The notes under the pieces were generated by a model, which was given only the letters and a program-made list of their open reading frames with translations, was not told the origin of the DNA and did not search any database. Shown here piece after piece: positions 7,600 to 18,170 of a stretch of 64,000 nucleotides of DNA. Made by a program: the position numbers and the translations under genes. This stretch comes from Arcobacter sp. GTDB taxonomy: Bacteria; Campylobacterota; Campylobacteria; Campylobacterales; Arcobacteraceae. Every line of letters starts with the position of its first letter. Positions within the stretch are counted from its first letter, which is position 1. The stretch covers positions 1 to 64,000 of the forward strand of contig QKDL01000054.1 of the NCBI GenBank assembly GCA_003252105.1, in the 5' to 3' direction.

Positions 7600-9408
7600 C
7601 TATTCAAGTCCAACAAAACTTTTTATTGGATGGTCTTCTGCAGGTAATTTTGTTAGTGTTTGATTATTTGCAGTTAAAGTTTCCATATATTTTACAAAAC
7701 TCATTGCATAATCTAAATATGTATCAACTCCTAATCCTCTTTCATCTTGAACAGTTTTAAAAGTTACATATCCATCTTTTCCACCAGCAGTATAAGAGTT
7801 AGTAACAATTGTATACATAGTATTATTACTAATTGTTGACCAAACTCCTGTTTGTCTATTTTTAATCTCTAAATTTGAGATTCTATTATTTGCAGTTGCA
7901 GTTAAATCTACATCATATTTTAAACCATAAGCATATGGGAAAGAACCAGTTGAACCTTCTGGGTCTATTGTATTTGTTATAGCATCTTCTAATACTTGTT
8001 TTATTTCATTTCCATACATTTGTAATTCAAATAGTGTGTTTGCAAAAGGTAACAGTGTATATGCATCGCCCATAGTAACTTCACCAGCTTCTATAGCAAC
8101 TCTAACTCCACCTGCATTTTGAATACAAGCATCAGCTAAATTACTTAAATCATAAAAAGATTTTGCAACAATTGGAGCAATATCACTTCCTAAAGGTAAA
8201 GCAGCAACACCATCTTTTGCATCACCAGGGATTCTATTGTGTCCAAGTCTTTCACTTGCAGTTCCAATTACAACTGTTTTTTTAGCATCCACTTCATCAG
8301 AATAAGTTTTTACAACACTTAAAGTATAAGCATCTTCAGTTGTAACTTCAATATTATTATTTGAAGCTATTGAATTTAAAATTGATGTTTTTATACTATC
8401 ACTTACTACTTGGTCATCACCATTAGCATCCTCTTGAGTAAACTCATCACCTACTAAAAGTAAAGGATTTCCACCACAAGATGTTACTTCTCCTGATTTA
8501 TTAAACTCAACATCTAAATTTCCAAGAATATGTCCATATTCCCAAGCATGAGCTATACAAACTTTTTTACCATCTTTTGATTGTTCAACAGTTGGATATG
8601 TACTTACACTACTTTCTAATCCTAAAGATGCAAAATCACCTTGTAAAGTGTGAGAATCTCCACCAATTATTACGTCAACTCCATTTAAAGCTTTTGCCAT
8701 AGTTACATCATTTGAATAACCTTGGTGAGTAAGTAATACTATTTTATTAACACCTAAAGAAATTAATTCATTTATATAATTTTGTGCCGTTTCTAATTCA
8801 TCTGAAAAGATTATCTCATCACTTGGATTTGAAGAATTTTGAGTTTTTCCAACAATATCAATACCTATAACTCCAACTTTTTCACCTGCTATCTCTTTGA
8901 TAATATATGGAGTCCAATACCCTTCTAATATATTCCCTGATTGAGGTACAACATTTGCAGAAACTACAGAAATCGTATCATTTAACATATCTAAAAATGA
9001 TTTTAATCCTGCATCTCCATCATCAAATTCATGATTTCCTAAAGCATAAGCATCCCAAGAGATTAGATTCATCATAGCTGCATCAGCTTCACCTTTAAAT
9101 AGTGAATAAAAAAGTGTCCCTTGAAAAACATCTCCAGCATTTAGTGTTAAAGAGTTTGGTTTTGTTTGTTTAAACTCATTTAATTTTGTTACAAACCTAG
9201 CATATCCACCTACAGATACATTTGTTGCTACTCCATCAAACTCTAAAGACATTGATTCACTTTCAATATGAGAATGGGTATCATCTACATGAAAAATCGA
9301 TAGATTAAAACTCTCTTCATCATTACTAGAAGAACTACTACTTCCACAACCTACAAATATGCTTCCTATTAAAAATAGTGAAGCTATATTTAAATAAAAC
9401 TTTTTCAT
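7600..9408 (-). CDS. 5'-nucleotidase / UDP-sugar hydrolase family lipoprotein
   Basis: Surface or periplasmic phosphoesterase of the UshA/5'-nucleotidase family, 602 residues from the chosen start. The lipobox FVGC puts Cys21 at the lipidation site, followed by a run of Ser. The N-terminal metallophosphatase domain shows D43/H45 (DDTHSH), D93 (NAGDVFQG), GNHEFD at 124-129, then LTHQGY and GGDSHTL. The C-terminal 5_nucleotid_C domain has NAGGVRVAIEAG. The open frame reaches GTG at 9417, but AGGAG (9416-9420) covers that codon and sits 8 nt from the ATG at 9408, which also gives a standard signal peptide (MKKFYLN...). It would release phosphate from nucleotides. A Pho-box-like promoter lies upstream. 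Confidence 0.9.
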   Translation of the reverse strand: MKKFYLNIASLFLIGSIFVGCGSSSSSSNDEESFNLSIFHVDDTHSHIESESMSLEFDGVATNVSVGGYARFVTKLNEFKQTKPNSLTLNAGDVFQGTLFYSLFKGEADAAMMNLISWDAYALGNHEFDDGDAGLKSFLDMLNDTISVVSANVVPQSGNILEGYWTPYIIKEIAGEKVGVIGIDIVGKTQNSSNPSDEIIFSDELETAQNYINELISLGVNKIVLLTHQGYSNDVTMAKALNGVDVIIGGDSHTLQGDFASLGLESSVSTYPTVEQSKDGKKVCIAHAWEYGHILGNLDVEFNKSGEVTSCGGNPLLLVGDEFTQEDANGDDQVVSDSIKTSILNSIASNNNIEVTTEDAYTLSVVKTYSDEVDAKKTVVIGTASERLGHNRIPGDAKDGVAALPLGSDIAPIVAKSFYDLSNLADACIQNAGGVRVAIEAGEVTMGDAYTLLPFANTLFELQMYGNEIKQVLEDAITNTIDPEGSTGSFPYAYGLKYDVDLTATANNRISNLEIKNRQTGVWSTISNNTMYTIVTNSYTAGGKDGYVTFKTVQDERGLGVDTYLDYAMSFVKYMETLTANNQTLTKLPAEDHPIKSFVGLE

Positions 9409-9436
9409 TAACATCACTCCTAAAAAAATATGGCAA

Positions 9437-9470
9437 ATTGTATTATTTAAAAGTTACATAATAATAACAA
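9437..9470 (-). promoter_or_regulatory. Pho-box-like promoter of the nucleotidase gene
   Basis: Reading leftward: TTGTTAT (9470-9464), TATT, ATGTAAC (9459-9453), 10 nt, then -10 TACAAT (9442-9437). The two 7-bp units are spaced 11 bp, as in PhoB operators of enteric bacteria. The same geometry occurs at 12419-12452, 12515-12548 and 16404-16437. Confidence 0.75.
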
Positions 9471-9518
9471 GTTTATTTATTGATTATTGTTAGATAGTTG
9501 TATTTTATTATTTTATCT

Positions 9519-9546
9519 TAATAAAGGGAAAAATTTCCCTTTATTA
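9519..9546 (-). terminator. Terminator after the phytase-like gene
   Basis: Near-perfect palindrome: TAATAAAGGGAAA (9519-9531) and TTTCCCTTTATTA (9534-9546). It lies just downstream of the stop at 9550 on the minus strand and ends in T-rich sequence. Confidence 0.75.
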
Positions 9547-9549
9547 GGT

Positions 9550-12387
9550 TTATTTAATTTCATAGATTGCAGTAGAACCACTCATCTCATAAGAAACTAA
9601 TAATAGATTTTTTCCATTTGGAGAATCATTAGCTGGAATAAATTTCATACCTTCAGGAGAGATATCACCTTTTGATTCAGTTTCAATATAATCCACAAAA
9701 GTTGCATTTGAAGGGTTTGTGATATTATAAACTAAAATAGCATTTTGTCTTTCTAATCCAACAAATGCATAAGTAACACCATCTATTGTTCCTAAAGCAA
9801 GAGCTTCAGGCTCTCCACCTTTATTTCCACTTCTTCCATCCATTTGACCTTCATCTTGATTAAATAGTGCTGGTTGAAGTTCTGCTATTTTTTTAGAAAT
9901 CTCATCACCACTATCCCATACTAAATCACCATTTGCATCCCAAATAGCAAAGCTTCTTGCACCATAAGTATATAATTTATCATAATCACCATCATTGTCT
10001 GTATCACCTAAATCAATCATAACTTTTAGGTCATTATCATTTTCATATGCAGATGCAATTGAAGGATCAAGTGTAAGTTTTGAGATTTTACTTTCATCTG
10101 TTAAAGCATCTCCAGTTTCTAAAGTATCACTTACATCATCTATAGGATATTCTCTTCCATCACCTTCATTTGCAGTTACTAAATATGTTTGACCATTATA
10201 AGTATATGAAGCTATTGAATCTGGTTGGTATAAACCAAAAAGTTGTAGATAGTTTTTCATCTCTATGATACCATTCTCTTCAATATCAATAGTATTTTGA
10301 CTTGAATAATCTTTTGCACCAAATGATTTGATATATGATAAAGTATTTGTAGTCAAATCAACTTTTGCTAAAGCATTATTTTCTTGTAAAGTTACATAAG
10401 CAAAATTACCATCAACAGTGATATATTCAGGTTCTAAATCTTTTGTTTGAGAGTTACTAGGAGTTCCACCAAGTCTAACAGCTGTACCATCATTTGCAGC
10501 AGTTGTAGCAATATTTAAAGCGATATCAGTATATGAATAATCAGATGTATTAATAACCCCAATAGTTCCCTCTGGGTCTACACTATAATCACCATTTGGT
10601 TCACCTTCATTTGCTACAATAACTCTTGAACCATCATCATTAAATGTAACCATATCTGGTAAATATCCAACTTGTACTGTATGTAAATGGTTTCCATTAA
10701 TGTCAAAGAATACTACATTTCCTTTGCTATTTGTTCTTAATCCATCAGTTGATTTAGTTTCAACTGCAACTGCAATCTTACCATCATGAGCAGTAACAGA
10801 ATTTACACCTGTACCATAAGAGCTTAAATCAATACTTGATACTAAAGTAGCAGAAGTTACATCTGAAATATTAATAATATCAATCTTATTATCCGCACCA
10901 TTTGTTACAAACATTCTTTTAGAAGCTTTATCATATGCAACGATTTCACTTCCTGCTTCTTTATTTGTATTGTATGAACCAACTTTTTCAAGTTTAGAAG
11001 ATAAATTTGGGTTTTCAACAACATATAAAGTATTTCCATCTACAGTTTTCATCTCAGAATCTATATATTTTTGTTCTAATACTCCTGATGTTGACCATGT
11101 AGCAAAGTCATCATCATTTAAAACACCTAAGTTACCATTTTTAAATACAATTAAACCTTCCATTTTATCATGTGGATAGTTTACCTCTTGAACCATATCT
11201 ACTACTAATTGTTTAGATACAGGATAGATACCATTTGAAGCTAAGGCTTCCCATCCACCATTTAATACAACTTGCTCTAATGTTAAACCATCAATTGTTA
11301 ATCCAATAGATCCATCTTGCGCCATATTATTTGCTAAAGAAAAACCTTCTAACTCTGTTCCTGAAGATAATTTGATTTTATATACATATTTTTGTAAATC
11401 AGAAGTATCTTTTAAGAAACTTCCATCTCTTTCAATAATTAAAAACTCATCATTACTTAATGCTACAATCTCAGAGTTTGAATTTTCATTTTTATCTTGT
11501 TTATAAAGATATTGTTTTGTTGCTCCTGTTTCCACATCAACAGTAACAATTCTTGTAATATTTAGTTTTCTAACTTCAGAAGATGGTAAATCCATTGTTG
11601 ATTGCATAATCCCAACAAGTGTTTTTTGATCAGGAGTTATAGTTAAACCTTCCATACCTCTGTTTGCTCTTCTATATGCAAACTCTGCTGGTAATGTAAA
11701 AGTATTTCTAGCATCAGAAATAAAAGGATTAATTCTTCCAATCTCTTTACCATTTGCATCAAAGTGTACCATATGTGGACCATACTCATCACTTATCCAA
11801 AATGTTCCATCATTTAATACTGCTAAACCTTCCCCATCTAAACCATAATCATCAAGTTTAATATTACCATCTTCATCTACAATTGTATTACCCTCAGCAT
11901 CATATGGAGTTTCACCAGTTCCTCCTAAAGCAGAAGTATTTGGTAATCCAGAAATCTCAGTTCCATCAGGTCTTTTTAAAAGTATATCTTTTATTTTTTT
12001 AACTGAGTTATCTGCTTGAATTTCAAAAAGTCCAATTCTAGGTACATAATTTGGAACTGGAAACATTTTCCCTTTTCCATCATCTCCTGTATATGTTGCA
12101 TTTGGACCTCTATCAGTTAATGCATAAAATTGTTTTTCATTTGTTGGATGAGCTGCAGCAGCAGAACCATACCCACCATTTCTTACAAAAAACTTTTCAC
12201 CATCTTTTGCACCATTATCTAACTCTTCACCAATCTCTACATATGGTAATAGTGCTCCACCATTAAAAAACTTTTCTATTACTGAATCTGTACTAGAATC
12301 ACTGCTAGATGAACTACCGCACCCCACTAAAGAGATAGATAAAACTGCACTTGCAACCGTTAAACTTAACCAATTTTTTTTATTCAT
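9550..12387 (-). CDS. Phytase-like esterase / choice-of-anchor I domain lipoprotein
   Basis: A 945-residue lipoprotein (lipobox LVGC, Cys23, then a Ser-rich linker). The N-terminal half (about 50-430) matches the 'esterase-like activity of phytase' family, with motifs ALTDRGPN, DGEGLAVLNDGTFWISDEYGPHM and RRANRGMEGLTITPD. The C-terminal half (about 460-940) matches the choice-of-anchor I beta-propeller-like domain, with repeats such as SEIVAYDKASKRMFVTNGADN and DMVTFNDDGSRVIVANEGEPNGDY. Related fusions occur among phosphate-starvation lipoproteins. I infer phosphoester hydrolysis; exact substrate is unknown. It has its own Pho-box-like promoter, back to back with that of phoX. Confidence 0.8.
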   Translation of the reverse strand: MNKKNWLSLTVASAVLSISLVGCGSSSSSDSSTDSVIEKFFNGGALLPYVEIGEELDNGAKDGEKFFVRNGGYGSAAAAHPTNEKQFYALTDRGPNATYTGDDGKGKMFPVPNYVPRIGLFEIQADNSVKKIKDILLKRPDGTEISGLPNTSALGGTGETPYDAEGNTIVDEDGNIKLDDYGLDGEGLAVLNDGTFWISDEYGPHMVHFDANGKEIGRINPFISDARNTFTLPAEFAYRRANRGMEGLTITPDQKTLVGIMQSTMDLPSSEVRKLNITRIVTVDVETGATKQYLYKQDKNENSNSEIVALSNDEFLIIERDGSFLKDTSDLQKYVYKIKLSSGTELEGFSLANNMAQDGSIGLTIDGLTLEQVVLNGGWEALASNGIYPVSKQLVVDMVQEVNYPHDKMEGLIVFKNGNLGVLNDDDFATWSTSGVLEQKYIDSEMKTVDGNTLYVVENPNLSSKLEKVGSYNTNKEAGSEIVAYDKASKRMFVTNGADNKIDIINISDVTSATLVSSIDLSSYGTGVNSVTAHDGKIAVAVETKSTDGLRTNSKGNVVFFDINGNHLHTVQVGYLPDMVTFNDDGSRVIVANEGEPNGDYSVDPEGTIGVINTSDYSYTDIALNIATTAANDGTAVRLGGTPSNSQTKDLEPEYITVDGNFAYVTLQENNALAKVDLTTNTLSYIKSFGAKDYSSQNTIDIEENGIIEMKNYLQLFGLYQPDSIASYTYNGQTYLVTANEGDGREYPIDDVSDTLETGDALTDESKISKLTLDPSIASAYENDNDLKVMIDLGDTDNDGDYDKLYTYGARSFAIWDANGDLVWDSGDEISKKIAELQPALFNQDEGQMDGRSGNKGGEPEALALGTIDGVTYAFVGLERQNAILVYNITNPSNATFVDYIETESKGDISPEGMKFIPANDSPNGKNLLLVSYEMSGSTAIYEIK

Positions 12388-12418
12388 TTATATTCCTTCC
12401 TAATTACGAAAATCAAAA

Positions 12419-12452
12419 ATTTTAGCTATAGAAAGTTACAAATTAATAACAT
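12419..12452 (-). promoter_or_regulatory. Pho-box-like promoter of the phytase-like gene
   Basis: Reading leftward: ATGTTAT (12452-12446), TAAT, TTGTAAC (12441-12435), 10 nt, then -10 TAAAAT (12424-12419). The 10-nt gap from second unit to -10 is the same as in the other three sites. Confidence 0.75.
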
Positions 12453-12514
12453 TATTTGATATGGCTACCTTTATTTTTTAACCTTAAAGAATACTAAAAT
12501 CTTTGATAGGTAAC

Positions 12515-12548
12515 CTGTAACTTAAATGTAATTTAAAAGTTTTAACAT
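12515..12548 (+). promoter_or_regulatory. Pho-box-like promoter of phoX
   Basis: CTGTAAC (12515-12521), TTAA, ATGTAAT (12526-12532), 10 nt, then -10 TAACAT (12543-12548). It forms a divergent control region with the site at 12419-12452, 62 bp away. It also places the probable transcript start near 12555, ahead of the chosen ATG at 12608. Confidence 0.78.
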
Positions 12549-12607
12549 TCACGTCTACTCGGTGGTATTGTAGAGTAAAAATGAAACTAAAAATAAGGAA
12601 TAATAGT

Positions 12608-14545
12608 ATGAGAAAATCATATATAAGTATAGCAGTAGCTTCAATGGTTGCTTCATTGGCACTTGTTGGTTGTGGAAGTAGTAGTAGCAGTTCAGATACA
12701 ACTGTTGACACTCCTTCATCTAACTCACTTGTTAGAGAATCTGGAATTGCAAAAAAAGTTGTTTTAGCAGAAATTCCTGCTCCTTTAACAAATGAAGAAA
12801 AATCTTCAATTATTGCTACAGATAGTGTAACTTATGATAATGGTGAAGGTAGTACAAGTACAATTGGTTTTACAAAATTAATTAGTGCAAAAACTATTAA
12901 CAACGGTCAAACATTTGGTGCAGTAAAAGATTTCAATGATGCAACAGTTACAGATAATGATGGTAATCTTATCATCTGTGATGGAGCAAATGGTAATATT
13001 GGTGGTTCAGGTTTAGACCATACATCAATATTAACAAACAATGGAAGAATTTTTGCAGTTTCTCAATTTGAGTGTGCAAATGGTTCTATGTATGGATATG
13101 AGTTATCTCAAGATGCATCAACTGGAGCTTTATCAGTTATTCCTAACTCGATGCAATATATTAGCCAAAAATCTGGTTTTGGTGGATGGGTTCACTGTGC
13201 TGGTATGGTAACACCTTGGGGTACTCACTTAGGTTCTGAAGAGTATGAACCTGATGCAAGAGCATTTACTGCTGCTTCTTATGATGCAAATTTAGGTTAT
13301 TTTAACGCTGGATATGGAGAAAGTGATTATTTTAACCAAAACTTAAAATACTACTGGAATGGTGATCATACTAAAACTAGTCCATACTACTATGGATTTA
13401 TCCCTGAAGTTTCTGTAAGTGCAACATCAACAACTCCTACTTATACATATACAAAACACTTTTCTATGGGTAGAGCTGCTTGGGAACTTGCATATGTTAT
13501 GCCTGATCAAAAAACTGCATACCTTTCAGATGATGGAACAAACGTAGGTTTTTATATGTATGTAGCTAACACTGCTGGTAACTTAAGTGCTGGTTCATTA
13601 TATGCTGCAAAATGGAATCAAACTTCTGGAGAAGAAGCTGGAGCTGCTGATTTAACATGGATTAAATTAGGAACTGCTACAGATGCTGAGATTAAATCAA
13701 TTTTAGATGCAGGTATAGAGTTTAGTGATATTTTTGATGCAGTTGATCCTGCTGATGATAACACATGTGCACAAGGTTACACAAGAATCAATACATCATG
13801 GGGATTAGAGTGTTTATCTGTAAAAGCTGGTAAAGAAAAAGCGGCAGCATTTTTAGAAACAAGAAGATACTCTGCAATGTTAGGTGCAACTACTGAGTTT
13901 AGAAAAGAAGAAGGTATTACTTATAATCCTGATCATAATAAACTTTATGTAGCTATGAGTGAGATTAGAAAAGGTATGTTAGATGGGGACTCTAATGATA
14001 CTGGTGGAAACAATGATATCAGATTAGCTGAAAACAAATGTGGTGCAGTTTATGGTTTAGATGTTTATGGTGCAACTGAAACACCTAAAGATAGTACAAA
14101 TACTACAATCAATAGTTCATATGTTGTAAAAAATATGTATGGTGTAGTAAGAGGAATCGCAGCTTCTTATGATGCTGGTTCAGATTATGAAGCATATACA
14201 TGTGCTCCTGATTCAATTGCACATCCAGATAATATCACTTATTTACAAGGTGAAAACCTATTAGTTATTGGTGAAGATACAGACAGACATCCAAATGACT
14301 TTATTTGGGCATATGATGTTGTAAGTGGAAAAATGACAAGAATTTTATCAACTCCATATGGTTCTGAAACTACATCTCCATACTGGTATAAAGATATCAA
14401 TGGATTTGGTTACTTAACTGCTGTTACTCAACACCCATTTGGTGAAACAAGTAGTAGTGATCCTGATTATTCATTAGTTGAATCTGCAACAAACAAAGAA
14501 TCATCTTTTGGTGTTGTTGGACCATTTAACTTCACAGCTAGATAA
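12608..14545 (+). CDS. phoX: PhoX-family alkaline phosphatase (DUF839), lipoprotein
   Basis: Monomeric alkaline phosphatase of the PhoX type, which uses calcium and iron rather than zinc. It has 645 residues from the chosen start. The family block GGWVHCAGMVTPWGTHLGSEEY falls at about 192-213, and FSMGRAAWELAYVMPDQKTAYLSDDG and IAHPDNITYLQGENLLVIGED follow. The lipobox LVGC puts Cys22 ahead of a Ser run, so this copy is a lipoprotein rather than a Tat-exported soluble enzyme; no twin-Arg is present. The frame extends to ATG 12581, but AGGAA at 12595-12599 lies 8 nt from ATG 12608, which starts a normal signal peptide (MRKSYIS). The Pho-box-like site upstream fits phosphate-starvation induction. 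Confidence 0.9.
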   Translation: MRKSYISIAVASMVASLALVGCGSSSSSSDTTVDTPSSNSLVRESGIAKKVVLAEIPAPLTNEEKSSIIATDSVTYDNGEGSTSTIGFTKLISAKTINNGQTFGAVKDFNDATVTDNDGNLIICDGANGNIGGSGLDHTSILTNNGRIFAVSQFECANGSMYGYELSQDASTGALSVIPNSMQYISQKSGFGGWVHCAGMVTPWGTHLGSEEYEPDARAFTAASYDANLGYFNAGYGESDYFNQNLKYYWNGDHTKTSPYYYGFIPEVSVSATSTTPTYTYTKHFSMGRAAWELAYVMPDQKTAYLSDDGTNVGFYMYVANTAGNLSAGSLYAAKWNQTSGEEAGAADLTWIKLGTATDAEIKSILDAGIEFSDIFDAVDPADDNTCAQGYTRINTSWGLECLSVKAGKEKAAAFLETRRYSAMLGATTEFRKEEGITYNPDHNKLYVAMSEIRKGMLDGDSNDTGGNNDIRLAENKCGAVYGLDVYGATETPKDSTNTTINSSYVVKNMYGVVRGIAASYDAGSDYEAYTCAPDSIAHPDNITYLQGENLLVIGEDTDRHPNDFIWAYDVVSGKMTRILSTPYGSETTSPYWYKDINGFGYLTAVTQHPFGETSSSDPDYSLVESATNKESSFGVVGPFNFTAR

Positions 14546-14552
14546 TATTAAA

Positions 14553-14626
14553 TATTTATAAAAGGGTTTATCCCCTTTTATAAATAGATTGTGAACTAAA
14601 AAATAGTTTAGAATCTATTTATAAAA
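14553..14626 (+). terminator. Two mutually exclusive hairpins between phoX and the cytochrome gene
   Basis: Arm 1 (14553-14566, TATTTATAAAAGGG) pairs perfectly with arm 2 (14573-14586). Arm 2 is also part of a 15-nt segment (14576-14590) that pairs perfectly with arm 3 (14612-14626), enclosing a smaller stem AACTA/TAGTT. Only one pairing can form at a time. Arm 3 ends 3-5 nt before the ribosome binding site of the next gene. It may be a simple terminator plus a second hairpin or a switch. Confidence 0.55.
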
Positions 14627-14639
14627 ATTAGGGTGAATT

Positions 14640-16385
14640 ATGCAAAAAAAAGTTTTTTACGGTATATCGACTTTAGGAATATTATCAATATTAGTATTTA
14701 TTGGTTGTGGAGGAAGTAGTTCTTCAACAAATATCTCTTCTAGTAGACAAGTTTTAGATATAAATTTTAAAGCAACGGATTCTATAAACAATAGAGCGGC
14801 ATATGTAACAAGTCAATGTTATACTAAAACTACAGATGATAATAATAGTGTTCATAATCCATGTTTTACATGTCATATTAATTCTGCTACACCAAATTAT
14901 ATCAATGATTTTGAGTTACAAGAGCTTCATGATTTTGGAGATTATACAAAAACAAATAGATTCACAAATCTATTTAAAGATAGAACAGAGGCTGTAAATG
15001 CTATAAGTGATGAGAAAATTTTAAGTTATGTTAGAGAAGATAATTATAAAGACAATAACAATAATCTAATTTTAGCAAACAAATTAAATAGCATACCTTC
15101 AAACTGGGATGTAAATGAAAATGGTAAATGGGATGGTTATATTCCTGATTGTTATTTCAATTTTGATAATGAAGGTTTTGATAAAAATCCAAATGGAGAT
15201 TATACAGGATGGAGAGCATTTGCATATTATCCATTTTTGGGAACATTTTGGCCAACAAATGGAAGTACAGATGATGTTTTAATAAGATTGGCAAAAGAGT
15301 TTCAACAAGACACAAATGGAGTATTTAATAAAGAAGTTTATAAAATAAATCTTGCGATTGTTGAATCATTGATAAAGAGAAAAGATATTGATTTAGAAAA
15401 TAGTGTTGATGAAAACTTATATCAAGTTGACTTGGATAAAAATGGTACTTTAGGTACTGCTTCAAAAATAGTTTATAATTGGGAAAAATACTCTTATAAT
15501 TCAATTACTGGGAAATACTACAATTTTGCTATGAGTTATGTTGGTTTAGCAAAAACACTTTTAGAATCAAATACTTATTTAATAGGCCCTGGAAGATACC
15601 CTAAAGGAACTGAGTTTTTACATACAGTAAGATATATTGATATTGATGAAAATACTGACACAATAAAAATAGCTCCTAGAATGAAAGAGCTTAGATATGG
15701 TAAAAAATATACTTGGCTTGGAGATTGGGATTTAGAAAATGCCACTTCTGCTGAAGTTAAAGATAAAAATGATTTCCCTGATAGAATTAGAACAATCCAA
15801 GGAAACACAGAAGAAGGACTTCTTACAGGTCTTGGTTGGGTATATCAAGGTTTTATCGAAGATGAAAATGGAGAGTTAAGACCACAAAACTATGAAGAAA
15901 CACAATATTGTATCGGTTGTCACTCTGGTATTGGAGCAATTACAGATAGTACTTTTGTATTTCAAAGAAAATTTGACAATTCACATTTTCAAAAAGGATG
16001 GTATCACTGGTCACAAGATACAAATGGTTTAAATGGAATATTAGAACCAAAAACAGCAGATAATAGATATGAATATACACTTTATTTAGAACAAAATAAA
16101 GCTGGTGATGAGTTTAGAAGTAATAGTGAGATTATGGAAAAATTCTTTGATAACGAAGGAAATTTACTTGATGGTCAAGTACAAATAATGAGAGAAAATA
16201 TAGCATATTTATTATATCCTAGTACACAAAGAGCTTTAGAGTTAAACAAAGCTTATAAAGTGATTGTTGATGAACAAAGTTTTATTTATGGAAGAGATGC
16301 TCATGTTAAACCACTAGACAATGTAGAACAAGAGATAAAAGATGTAGGTCTAAGTACAGGAATTACGGCGGTAAAATATGAATAG
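14640..16385 (+). CDS. Di-heme c-type cytochrome lipoprotein, function unknown
   Basis: A 581-residue lipoprotein (lipobox FIGC, Cys23, Ser-rich linker) with two heme c motifs, CFTCH at 75-79 and CIGCH at 424-428, about 350 residues apart. The long region between, rich in Asp, Asn and Tyr, matches no family I recognise by eye; DENGKWDG-like and DLDKNGT segments could bind calcium. AGGG precedes the ATG. It lies 94 nt after phoX behind hairpins and has no Pho-box-like site of its own, so it may depend on readthrough from phoX. A redox role next to a phosphatase is unexplained. It was not called as a decaheme or peroxidase because only two CXXCH motifs exist. Confidence 0.8.
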   Translation: MQKKVFYGISTLGILSILVFIGCGGSSSSTNISSSRQVLDINFKATDSINNRAAYVTSQCYTKTTDDNNSVHNPCFTCHINSATPNYINDFELQELHDFGDYTKTNRFTNLFKDRTEAVNAISDEKILSYVREDNYKDNNNNLILANKLNSIPSNWDVNENGKWDGYIPDCYFNFDNEGFDKNPNGDYTGWRAFAYYPFLGTFWPTNGSTDDVLIRLAKEFQQDTNGVFNKEVYKINLAIVESLIKRKDIDLENSVDENLYQVDLDKNGTLGTASKIVYNWEKYSYNSITGKYYNFAMSYVGLAKTLLESNTYLIGPGRYPKGTEFLHTVRYIDIDENTDTIKIAPRMKELRYGKKYTWLGDWDLENATSAEVKDKNDFPDRIRTIQGNTEEGLLTGLGWVYQGFIEDENGELRPQNYEETQYCIGCHSGIGAITDSTFVFQRKFDNSHFQKGWYHWSQDTNGLNGILEPKTADNRYEYTLYLEQNKAGDEFRSNSEIMEKFFDNEGNLLDGQVQIMRENIAYLLYPSTQRALELNKAYKVIVDEQSFIYGRDAHVKPLDNVEQEIKDVGLSTGITAVKYE

Positions 16386-16403
16386 TATTTATACTATTTA
16401 TAG

Positions 16404-16437
16404 CTGTAACTTTTTTGTAATTCATTTTTCTTAAAAT
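16404..16437 (+). promoter_or_regulatory. Pho-box-like promoter of the ornithine-lipid synthase gene
   Basis: CTGTAAC (16404-16410), TTTT, TTGTAAT (16415-16421), 10 nt, then -10 TAAAAT (16432-16437), 20 nt before the start codon at 16458. It is the best match of the four sites. Confidence 0.8.
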
Positions 16438-16457: not shown

Positions 16458-18170
16458 ATGATAGATGTGCAAAAAGAGATAGAAAAAAAGTTCCCAAAAT
16501 TAGCAAAAAAACCGAACTTTTTAAATCAATCTTTAATTAAAGTAGCAAAAAAATTAGTACATGAAAACTCTATAAATGACTTTTTAGAAAAGAATTCTCA
16601 TCTTAAAGGATTTGAATTTGTAGATGCGGTACTTGATTATTTCAATTTTGATTATACTGTTTCAAGTAACGATTTACAAAATATCCCAAGTTCAGGAAAG
16701 GTTGTAATTATTGCAAACCATCCACTTGGTGCACTTGATGCTTTGTGTTTATTAAAACTTGTTGGAACTGTAAGAAGCGATGTAAAGATTGTTGCAAATG
16801 ACTTTTTAGTAGGAATTGAAGCTTTAAAATCTTTATTTATTCCTATAAACAATTTTAAAATGAGACAATCAAAAAACGATATAAAAGCAGTTTATGAAGC
16901 TTTAACAAATGAAGAAGCGGTAATTATATTCCCAGCAGGGGAAGTAAGCCGTGCAAGTGCAAAAGGGATAAAAGATCCTAACTGGAGTAAAGGTTTTTTA
17001 AATTTTGCATTGAATTCAAACTCTCCAATTTTACCTATTTTTATAGGTGGTAAAAACTCTAAAACTTTTTATACTATCTCTATATTGAATAAAACATTTT
17101 CAACTTTGCTTTTATCAAATGAGATGTTTAAAAAGAAATCTTCAAACATCAATGTAAAAGTTGGTGAGATTATTCCAAATGAGAATATTATGCCAAGAGG
17201 TATTGATAAAAAATACTTGGTAAACCTTTATAAAAAACATCTATATTGTTTAAAAAAAGGGAAAAAATCTTTTTTTGTAACTCAAAAAGCTATTGCCCAT
17301 CCTCAAAAAAAAGAGGATATTATAAAAGAGCTAAAAAAATCTTTACTAATTGGTGAAACAACAGATGGTAAAAAAATCTATTTATATGATTATGTTGAAG
17401 ATTCTGTTGTATTAAAAGAGTTAGGAAGATTAAGAGAACTATCTTTTAGAAAAGTTGGTGAAGGTATTAATCAAAAAAGAGATACTGATAAATATGATAT
17501 ATATTACCAACATATAATTCTTTGGGATGAAAATGATTTGGAAATCGTTGGTTCATATAGAATTGGAAATGGTAACTATATAAATAAAAATAAAGGAATC
17601 AAAGGATTTTATTCTAACTCTTTATTTAAATTCAATGAAGATTTTTATCCATATTTAAAAGACTCAATTGAATTAGGTCGAAGTTTTGTTCAACCAAAAT
17701 ATTGGGGAACTAGAGCACTTGATTATTTATGGTTTGGAATTGGAGCATATTTAAAAAACAATCCAGAAATCAAATATATGTTTGGACCTGTATCAATCTC
17801 TGCTAGTTTTCCAAGTGTAGCAAAAGATATGATGATTTTTTATTACACTCACTATTATGGAACTGAAAAAAATATGGTTGAATCAAAAATACCATATCAA
17901 TACTCATCAAATATTCAAGATAGCAAAGATTTATTTACATTAGATGATAAGAAAAAAGATTTTAAAGTATTAAAATCAACACTAAATAATATGGGTGTAA
18001 CTGTTCCAACTTTATTTAAACAATACTCAGATATTTGTGAAGATGGTGGAGTAAAATTTCTAAGCTTCAATGTAGACCCAGATTTCTCAGATTGTGTAGA
18101 TGGATTTATATTAGTTGAAGTTTCAAAAATAAAAAATAGTGCAAGAAAGAGATATATAGATAAAGAATAA
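16458..18170 (+). CDS. olsF: OlsF-type bifunctional ornithine-lipid synthase (O-acyltransferase plus N-acyltransferase)
   Basis: A 570-residue fusion. The N-terminal half (about 60-270) is a PlsC-like acyltransferase with the HPLGALD motif (HX4D box) near 93-99, FPAGEVSR near 157-164 and a late ILPIFIGG. The C-terminal half (about 290-560) is an OlsB-like GNAT/hemolysin-type N-acyltransferase with RELSFRKVGEG, DKYDIYYQHIILWDE, ELGRSFVQPKYWG and KYMFGPVSIS. This order matches OlsF of Serratia, which acylates ornithine and then the 3-hydroxy group to give phosphorus-free ornithine lipids. AAGGAG precedes the ATG. The upstream Pho-box-like promoter and phosphatase neighbours support a role in replacing phospholipids when phosphate is scarce. 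OlsF naming rests on domain order, not on assay. Confidence 0.85.
   Translation: MIDVQKEIEKKFPKLAKKPNFLNQSLIKVAKKLVHENSINDFLEKNSHLKGFEFVDAVLDYFNFDYTVSSNDLQNIPSSGKVVIIANHPLGALDALCLLKLVGTVRSDVKIVANDFLVGIEALKSLFIPINNFKMRQSKNDIKAVYEALTNEEAVIIFPAGEVSRASAKGIKDPNWSKGFLNFALNSNSPILPIFIGGKNSKTFYTISILNKTFSTLLLSNEMFKKKSSNINVKVGEIIPNENIMPRGIDKKYLVNLYKKHLYCLKKGKKSFFVTQKAIAHPQKKEDIIKELKKSLLIGETTDGKKIYLYDYVEDSVVLKELGRLRELSFRKVGEGINQKRDTDKYDIYYQHIILWDENDLEIVGSYRIGNGNYINKNKGIKGFYSNSLFKFNEDFYPYLKDSIELGRSFVQPKYWGTRALDYLWFGIGAYLKNNPEIKYMFGPVSISASFPSVAKDMMIFYYTHYYGTEKNMVESKIPYQYSSNIQDSKDLFTLDDKKKDFKVLKSTLNNMGVTVPTLFKQYSDICEDGGVKFLSFNVDPDFSDCVDGFILVEVSKIKNSARKRYIDKE

What the first reader, a model, noticed from the sequence alone, without database searches (positions are those of the whole stretch)
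9437..16437. Four Pho-box-like promoters with one exact geometry control a phosphate-scavenging island
Four promoters share the same architecture: two 7-bp units nTGTnAy spaced 11 bp, then exactly 10 nt to a -10 box TAnnnT. They are TTGTTAT-TATT-ATGTAAC with TACAAT (9470 to 9437, minus), ATGTTAT-TAAT-TTGTAAC with TAAAAT (12452 to 12419, minus), CTGTAAC-TTAA-ATGTAAT with TAACAT (12515 to 12548), and CTGTAAC-TTTT-TTGTAAT with TAAAAT (16404 to 16437). Each precedes a gene expected in a phosphate-starvation response: 5'-nucleotidase, phytase-like lipoprotein, PhoX and OlsF. The 11-bp repeat with CTGTnAy resembles the enteric PhoB box and, from memory, not the published C. jejuni PhosR box. If right, it defines the regulator's binding code in this lineage.
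Basis: partly seen in the sequence, partly recalled or inferred. Interest (0 to 1): 0.85.

Follow-up and report, generated by a model that had tools for sequence, protein, structure and literature searches.

The report
Phosphate-starvation regulon of an Arcobacter relative
The four promoters are real and belong to a genome-wide set of at least 16 phosphate-starvation (PhoB) promoters that share one exact layout with E. coli; the system itself is well known, but in this lineage its DNA code differs from the one used by Campylobacter and it includes a so far undescribed cytochrome gene.

Summary
Confirmed. With the half-site tightened to TGTWAY, the window holds 4 matches against 0.01 expected. 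The 10-nt gap to the -10 box holds genome-wide: 14 of 32 TGTWAY boxes have TANNNT at exactly 10 nt and at most 2 at any other spacing. E. coli pstS and phoA have the same layout. Beyond the four genes, the sites precede pstC, pstS, plcP-like/agt-like, phn, ugp, phoH, phoD and a secreted nuclease; relatives repeat this. A phoB-phoR pair lies in the pst operon.

Corrections: (1) nTGTnAy is too loose; six TGTGAC sites with the same layout look like another regulator's. (2) The C. jejuni-type box has the same layout and differs mainly at one half-site base (A5 to T5), together with PhoB residue 197 (V to I/T). (3) A fifth island gene, a diheme cytochrome c, was missed; all 20 copies found sit in a Pho context. 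Binding and phosphate response remain inferred.

The parts
9437..9470 (-). Pho promoter 1: box 9470-9453, -10 box TACAAT 9442-9437; drives the 5'-nucleotidase gene
   Evidence: profile hit E 0.017
7600..9417 (-). UshA-type 5'-nucleotidase lipoprotein
   Evidence: PF02872 111 bits, PF00149 41 bits; an orthologue in relative G077 also has a box
12419..12452 (-). Pho promoter 2: box 12452-12435, -10 box TAAAAT 12424-12419
   Evidence: profile hit E 0.001
9550..12387 (-). phytase-like (PF13449) plus choice-of-anchor I lipoprotein
12515..12548 (+). Pho promoter 3: box 12515-12532, -10 box TAACAT 12543-12548; drives phoX and probably the gene behind it
   Evidence: profile hit E 8e-4
12608..14545 (+). 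PhoX alkaline phosphatase lipoprotein (start at ATG 12608 after AAGGA; the listed ORF begins at 12581)
   Evidence: PF05787 64 bits; start codon read from sequence
   Evidence: motifs, invariant in 5 homologues; weak PF16694 at the cut-off; 20 of 20 copies in 17 genomes lie beside Pho genes or have their own Pho box
16404..16437 (+). Pho promoter 4: box 16404-16421, -10 box TAAAAT 16432-16437
   Evidence: profile hit E 1.5e-4; letters identical in congener G050
16458..18170 (+). OlsF, bifunctional ornithine lipid synthase (phosphorus-free membrane lipid)
   Evidence: NF052615 836 bits, over the cut-off of 620; orthologues in relatives carry the box

Best explanation
The four sites are sigma70 promoters activated by PhoB, the phosphate response regulator, and the island is one cluster of a genome-wide Pho regulon. 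When phosphate runs low, PhoR (encoded in the pst operon, here contig C53) would phosphorylate PhoB. Two PhoB effector domains would then bind head to tail on the two TGTWAY half-sites, 11 bp (one helical turn) apart. The box takes the place of a -35 element and sits exactly 10 nt before a TAnAAT -10 box, so PhoB would recruit sigma70 RNA polymerase. The products free phosphate from nucleotides and other esters (5'-nucleotidase, phytase-like protein, PhoX, PhoD, nuclease), import phosphate, phosphonate and glycerol-3-phosphate (Pst, Phn, Ugp) and replace phospholipids (OlsF; plcP-like and agt-like genes). Shown: the sites, their geometry, statistics, gene neighbourhoods and conservation. Inferred: PhoB binding, phosphate dependence and transcription start sites.
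For: Window: 4 hits against 0.01 expected. Spacing peak at 10 nt, 14 of 32 boxes, no other spacing above 2; 10 of 28 without the window's own four. The fifth -10 base is A in 14 of 14 sites although the search did not require it. Same geometry read from E. coli pstS and phoA. Gene contexts: pstC operon with phoU, PsiE family, phoB, phoR; plcP-like/agt-like with back-to-back boxes; PhnR/F-like, PhnC, PhnD; GlpR-like with UgpC/UgpB-like; PhoH; LTD nuclease. A profile built without pstS and phoD found both. 81 family genomes: 410 hits against 41 reversed. In relatives the sites precede orthologues of pstC, olsF, phoX, ushA, the cytochrome, plcP, agt, ugp, phnR, phoU, phoH. The regulator keeps PhoB base-contact residues T194, V197 and R201 (contacts named in PMC3264566).
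Against: No expression or binding data. The regulator does not reach NCBI's PhoB equivalog cut-off (173.7 against 296.2 bits), so its identity rests on operon position and residues. A few hits have no evident phosphate link: C51:21001 (inside a gene), an aldo/keto reductase, a REC-PAS-HD protein, a site facing away from a Pit-family gene. The genome is a draft (92% complete, 96 contigs). The pattern choice was guided by the first four sites.
Confidence: 0.93

Rival explanations
1. The sites belong to a different OmpR/PhoB-family regulator that shares the 11-bp, 10-nt geometry (for example the one behind the TGTGAC sites), and the phosphate genes are only part of a wider stress response.
For: Six sites with TGTGAC half-sites and the identical layout exist in this genome before PspA/flotillin, outer-membrane efflux and response-regulator genes, and the genome has 66 PhoB-profile matches, so geometry alone does not name the regulator.
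Against: The two classes separate cleanly at half-site base 4 (W or C against G) and by gene content; only the TGTWAY class precedes pst, phoB-phoR, phn and ugp genes. The best PhoB match of the genome lies inside the pst operon that has a box.
Confidence: 0.05
2. The four sites are chance matches in AT-rich intergenic DNA that happen to lie near phosphate genes.
For: The window is 28% G+C, and box-only matches without the -10 rule have a sizeable background: 34 hits against 16 in the reversed control.
Against: Full pattern: 0.01 expected against 4 seen, 14 against 0 genome-wide, and conservation before orthologous genes in other genera.
Confidence: 0.01
3. The sites are PhoB boxes, but some of them repress (for example near the Pit-family gene) or act together with a second regulator.
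For: A box that faces away from the Pit-family gene, some 30 bp from its annotated start, recurs before the same 69-aa gene in at least three relatives.
Against: For the four window sites the box-to-(-10) layout is that of activated E. coli promoters.
Confidence: 0.1

Closest known systems
E. coli PhoB Pho box (pstS, phoA promoters)
   Same: Two 7-bp direct repeats with a 4-bp gap, 10 nt to the -10 box; targets of the pst, phn, ugp, psiE and phoH kind; TGT and A5 of each half-site.
   Different: Half-site base 4 is C in E. coli and A or T here, apart from one half-site of the plcP-like promoter. The target set includes OlsF, PhoX, PhoD, plcP-like/agt-like genes and a diheme cytochrome.
Campylobacter jejuni PhosR box (GTTTC-N6-GTTTC, recalled from memory; Campylobacter-type pst promoters read here)
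   Same: Same 11-bp repeat and the same 10 nt to TANNNT; same phylum; pst and phoX are PhosR targets in C. jejuni (PMC3197622).
   Different: Half-site TGTWTC instead of TGTWAY; the regulator has I or T at the position of V197.
PlcP/Agt and OlsF lipid renovation under PhoB control in other Proteobacteria
   Same: plcP next to a glycosyltransferase with Pho boxes in marine bacteria (PMC4796936); V. cholerae OlsF VC0489 under PhoB (PMC12186959).
   Different: Here the plcP-like and agt-like genes are divergent with back-to-back boxes, and both lipid routes occur in one Campylobacterota genome. plcP identity rests on protein family and neighbourhood only.

Membership tests
Pho box / PhoB-activated promoter | two direct repeats with 11-bp period | tested here: met
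Pho box / PhoB-activated promoter | box replaces the -35 element, about 10 nt before the -10 box | tested here: met
   E. coli comparison
Pho box / PhoB-activated promoter | present before pst genes and the cognate phoB-phoR operon | tested here: met
   C53 pstC and pstS promoters; relatives
Pho box / PhoB-activated promoter | E. coli half-site letters CTGTCAT | tested here: not met
   TGTWAY in nearly all half-sites; species variants of the letters are accepted in the literature (PMC4415409), so this bears on the subtype
Pho box / PhoB-activated promoter | binding by phosphorylated PhoB and induction by low phosphate | not testable with these tools
   needs footprinting and RNA-seq
PhoB (TIGR02154 equivalog) | score over the curated cut-off | tested here: not met
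   173.7 against 296.2 bits; of the 12 control genomes with matches only 2 exceed it
PhoB by context | operon with pst, phoU and a PhoR-type kinase; base-contact residues T194, V197, R201 kept | tested here: met
   contacts from PMC3264566
Campylobacter PhosR box | GTTTC half-sites | tested here: not met
   the window's boxes lack it; Campylobacter-type pst promoters have it
OlsF | NF052615 score over the cut-off | tested here: met
   835.8 against 620 bits

The most novel reading that the evidence does not exclude
Within Campylobacterota the PhoB promoter layout stayed fixed while the half-site letters switched from TGTWAY to TGTWTC together with one base-contact residue of PhoB (V197 to I or T). 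This would be a natural specificity switch, with the diheme cytochrome as a new class of phosphate-regulon enzyme.
Probability: 0.35. Interest if true: 0.65.

Novelty: new member of a known kind. Interest (0 to 1): 0.5.

Why it matters
It gives a usable Pho-box definition (TGTWAY-N5-TGTWAY-N10-TANNNT) for Arcobacteraceae and several other Campylobacterota families, for which I found no published box in the library searched, and it names a target set that predicts two routes of membrane-lipid replacement. It shows that the C. jejuni box is the same promoter with one altered half-site base, tied to one regulator residue, which can be tested with a single substitution. It also points to a conserved diheme cytochrome whose role in phosphate scavenging is unexplained.

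Tried and rejected
A simple rule 'PhoB D196 reads C at base 4, N196 reads A or T' was considered and dropped as general: D196 regulators occur beside boxes with TGTAAC or TGTTAT half-sites (L269, L271). Its sequence search against solved structures gave only chance matches. The named-genome scan returned few Campylobacterota. Papers searched gave no published Pho box for Arcobacter; the original C. jejuni PhosR paper is not in the library, so its consensus is from memory.

Full report
OBSERVATION. The four sites are present as described. With both half-sites written TGTWAY and the gap to TANNNT fixed at 10 nt, they are the only four matches in 64 kb, against a mean of 0.01 in dinucleotide shuffles.

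GENOME-WIDE TEST. The window lies in a 3.02-Mb draft genome (contig C61). These fall into two classes. Fifteen have half-sites with A or T at position 4 (one half-site has C); six have TGTGAC in both. Downstream of the first class lie pstC; a back-to-back pair before a LpxH/PlcP-like metallophosphatase and a GT4 glycosyltransferase; the four window genes; a PhnR/PhnF-like regulator followed by phnC and phnD; a GlpR-like regulator followed by ugpC-like and ugpB-like genes; phoH; a secreted LTD nuclease; an aldo/keto reductase divergent from the phn genes; a REC-PAS-HD protein; one site facing away from a Pit-family transporter; and one site inside a gene that looks like chance. A sequence-only profile built from sites that did not include pstS or phoD found both in this genome (C53:9752, E 8.5e-4; C75:20770, E 3.4e-4).

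GEOMETRY. Of 32 TGTWAY-N5-TGTWAY boxes examined, 14 have TANNNT starting exactly 10 nt after the box, and no other spacing from 0 to 29 has more than 2. The fifth base of the -10 box is A in all 14 sites tabulated although the search left it free. E. coli pstS and phoA, read from MG1655, have the same 7-4-7 box and the same 10 nt. The layout is therefore the classical PhoB-activated promoter.

REGULATOR. The best PhoB match of the genome is in the pst operon: pstC-pstA-pstB-phoU-PsiE family-phoB-phoR. It is below NCBI's equivalog cut-off, so the name rests on context and on residues. T194, V197 and R201, listed as base contacts of E. coli PhoB (PMC3264566), are kept.

CONSERVATION. In 81 genomes of the family the TGTWAY pattern totals 410 hits against 41 reversed. 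Sites in relatives, fetched with their downstream DNA, precede orthologues of pstC, olsF, phoX, ushA, plcP-like, agt-like, ugp, phnR, phoU and phoH. Named Arcobacter and Aliarcobacter records, including an A. nitrofigilis assembly, have the box before pstC. At phylum level the pattern occurs in most families sampled but is nearly absent from f2 and f3.

THE CAMPYLOBACTER BOX. In the f3 genomes with a pst operon, and in one f2 genome, the pst promoter reads TGTWTC-N5-TGTTTC or close to it, again with 10 nt to TANNNT. All regulators from TGTWAY genomes have V at the position of E. coli V197; the 13 regulators from TGTWTC genomes that could be paired with a box have I or T. This is a correlation across perhaps one or two evolutionary events, not a proof. 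A parallel rule for residue 196 and base 4 fails outside the phylum.

SECOND CLASS. The six TGTGAC sites, with the same 11-bp and 10-nt layout, precede a PspA/NfeD-like/flotillin operon, an outer-membrane efflux gene, a response regulator and others. They are most simply the boxes of another OmpR-family regulator, kept apart from PhoB by half-site base 4. That regulator was not identified.

A FIFTH ISLAND GENE. The gene at 14640-16385, behind phoX, encodes a secreted protein with two CxxCH heme motifs that are invariant in its relatives. It occurs in 17 of 81 family genomes. All 20 copies lie beside phoX, the phytase-like gene or olsF, or have their own Pho box. Pfam gives only a borderline cytochrome P460 match. 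Its function is unknown; a role in oxidising a phosphorus compound or in maturing a metal-dependent phosphatase are guesses.

VERDICT. The kind of system is well known; the new parts are the lineage's code, the target list with two lipid-replacement routes, the relation to the Campylobacter box and the cytochrome.

Noticed in passing
L022:5369-5385 (G000:C5) and L158, L170, L176, L193: A Pho box faces away from a Pit-family (PHO4) transporter gene and recurs 210-250 nt before a small conserved 69-aa gene (broken frame in L193); it could drive the small gene, a leader RNA, or repress the transporter.
   Followed up: partly
L023, L024, L025, L026, L032, L034 (G000 contigs C22, C23, C29, C37, C82, C86): Six TGTGAC-N5-TGTGAC sites with the same 10 nt to the -10 box, before PspA/flotillin, efflux and response-regulator genes: a second regulon with the Pho geometry.
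   Followed up: partly
L161, L172, L181, L207: A ~985-aa chemoreceptor (NIT-MCP-CZB domains in L161) carries a full Pho box in four relatives, suggesting phosphate-controlled chemotaxis.
   Followed up: partly
L028:6998-8719 (G000:C53): A 573-aa protein, probably of the EAL type by eye, lies between pstS and pstC; with the Pho-box REC-PAS-HD gene on C83 it hints at a link between phosphate and cyclic-di-GMP.
   Followed up: no
L163, L183, L043 (G000:C46:4187): A conserved box 240-260 nt upstream of a small ferredoxin gene and ndk; the -10 box at 10 nt is missing in the window's own genome.
   Followed up: partly
G000:C52:2711 (L337): Profile hit just before an inositol monophosphatase family gene; possible further Pho gene.
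   Followed up: partly
L214 and L215: Contigs titled as a gammaproteobacterial MAG and a Bathymodiolus methanotrophic symbiont carry PstC 73-77% identical to the window genome's; L215 has a TGTCAC box, so mislabelled bins or transfer are possible.
   Followed up: no
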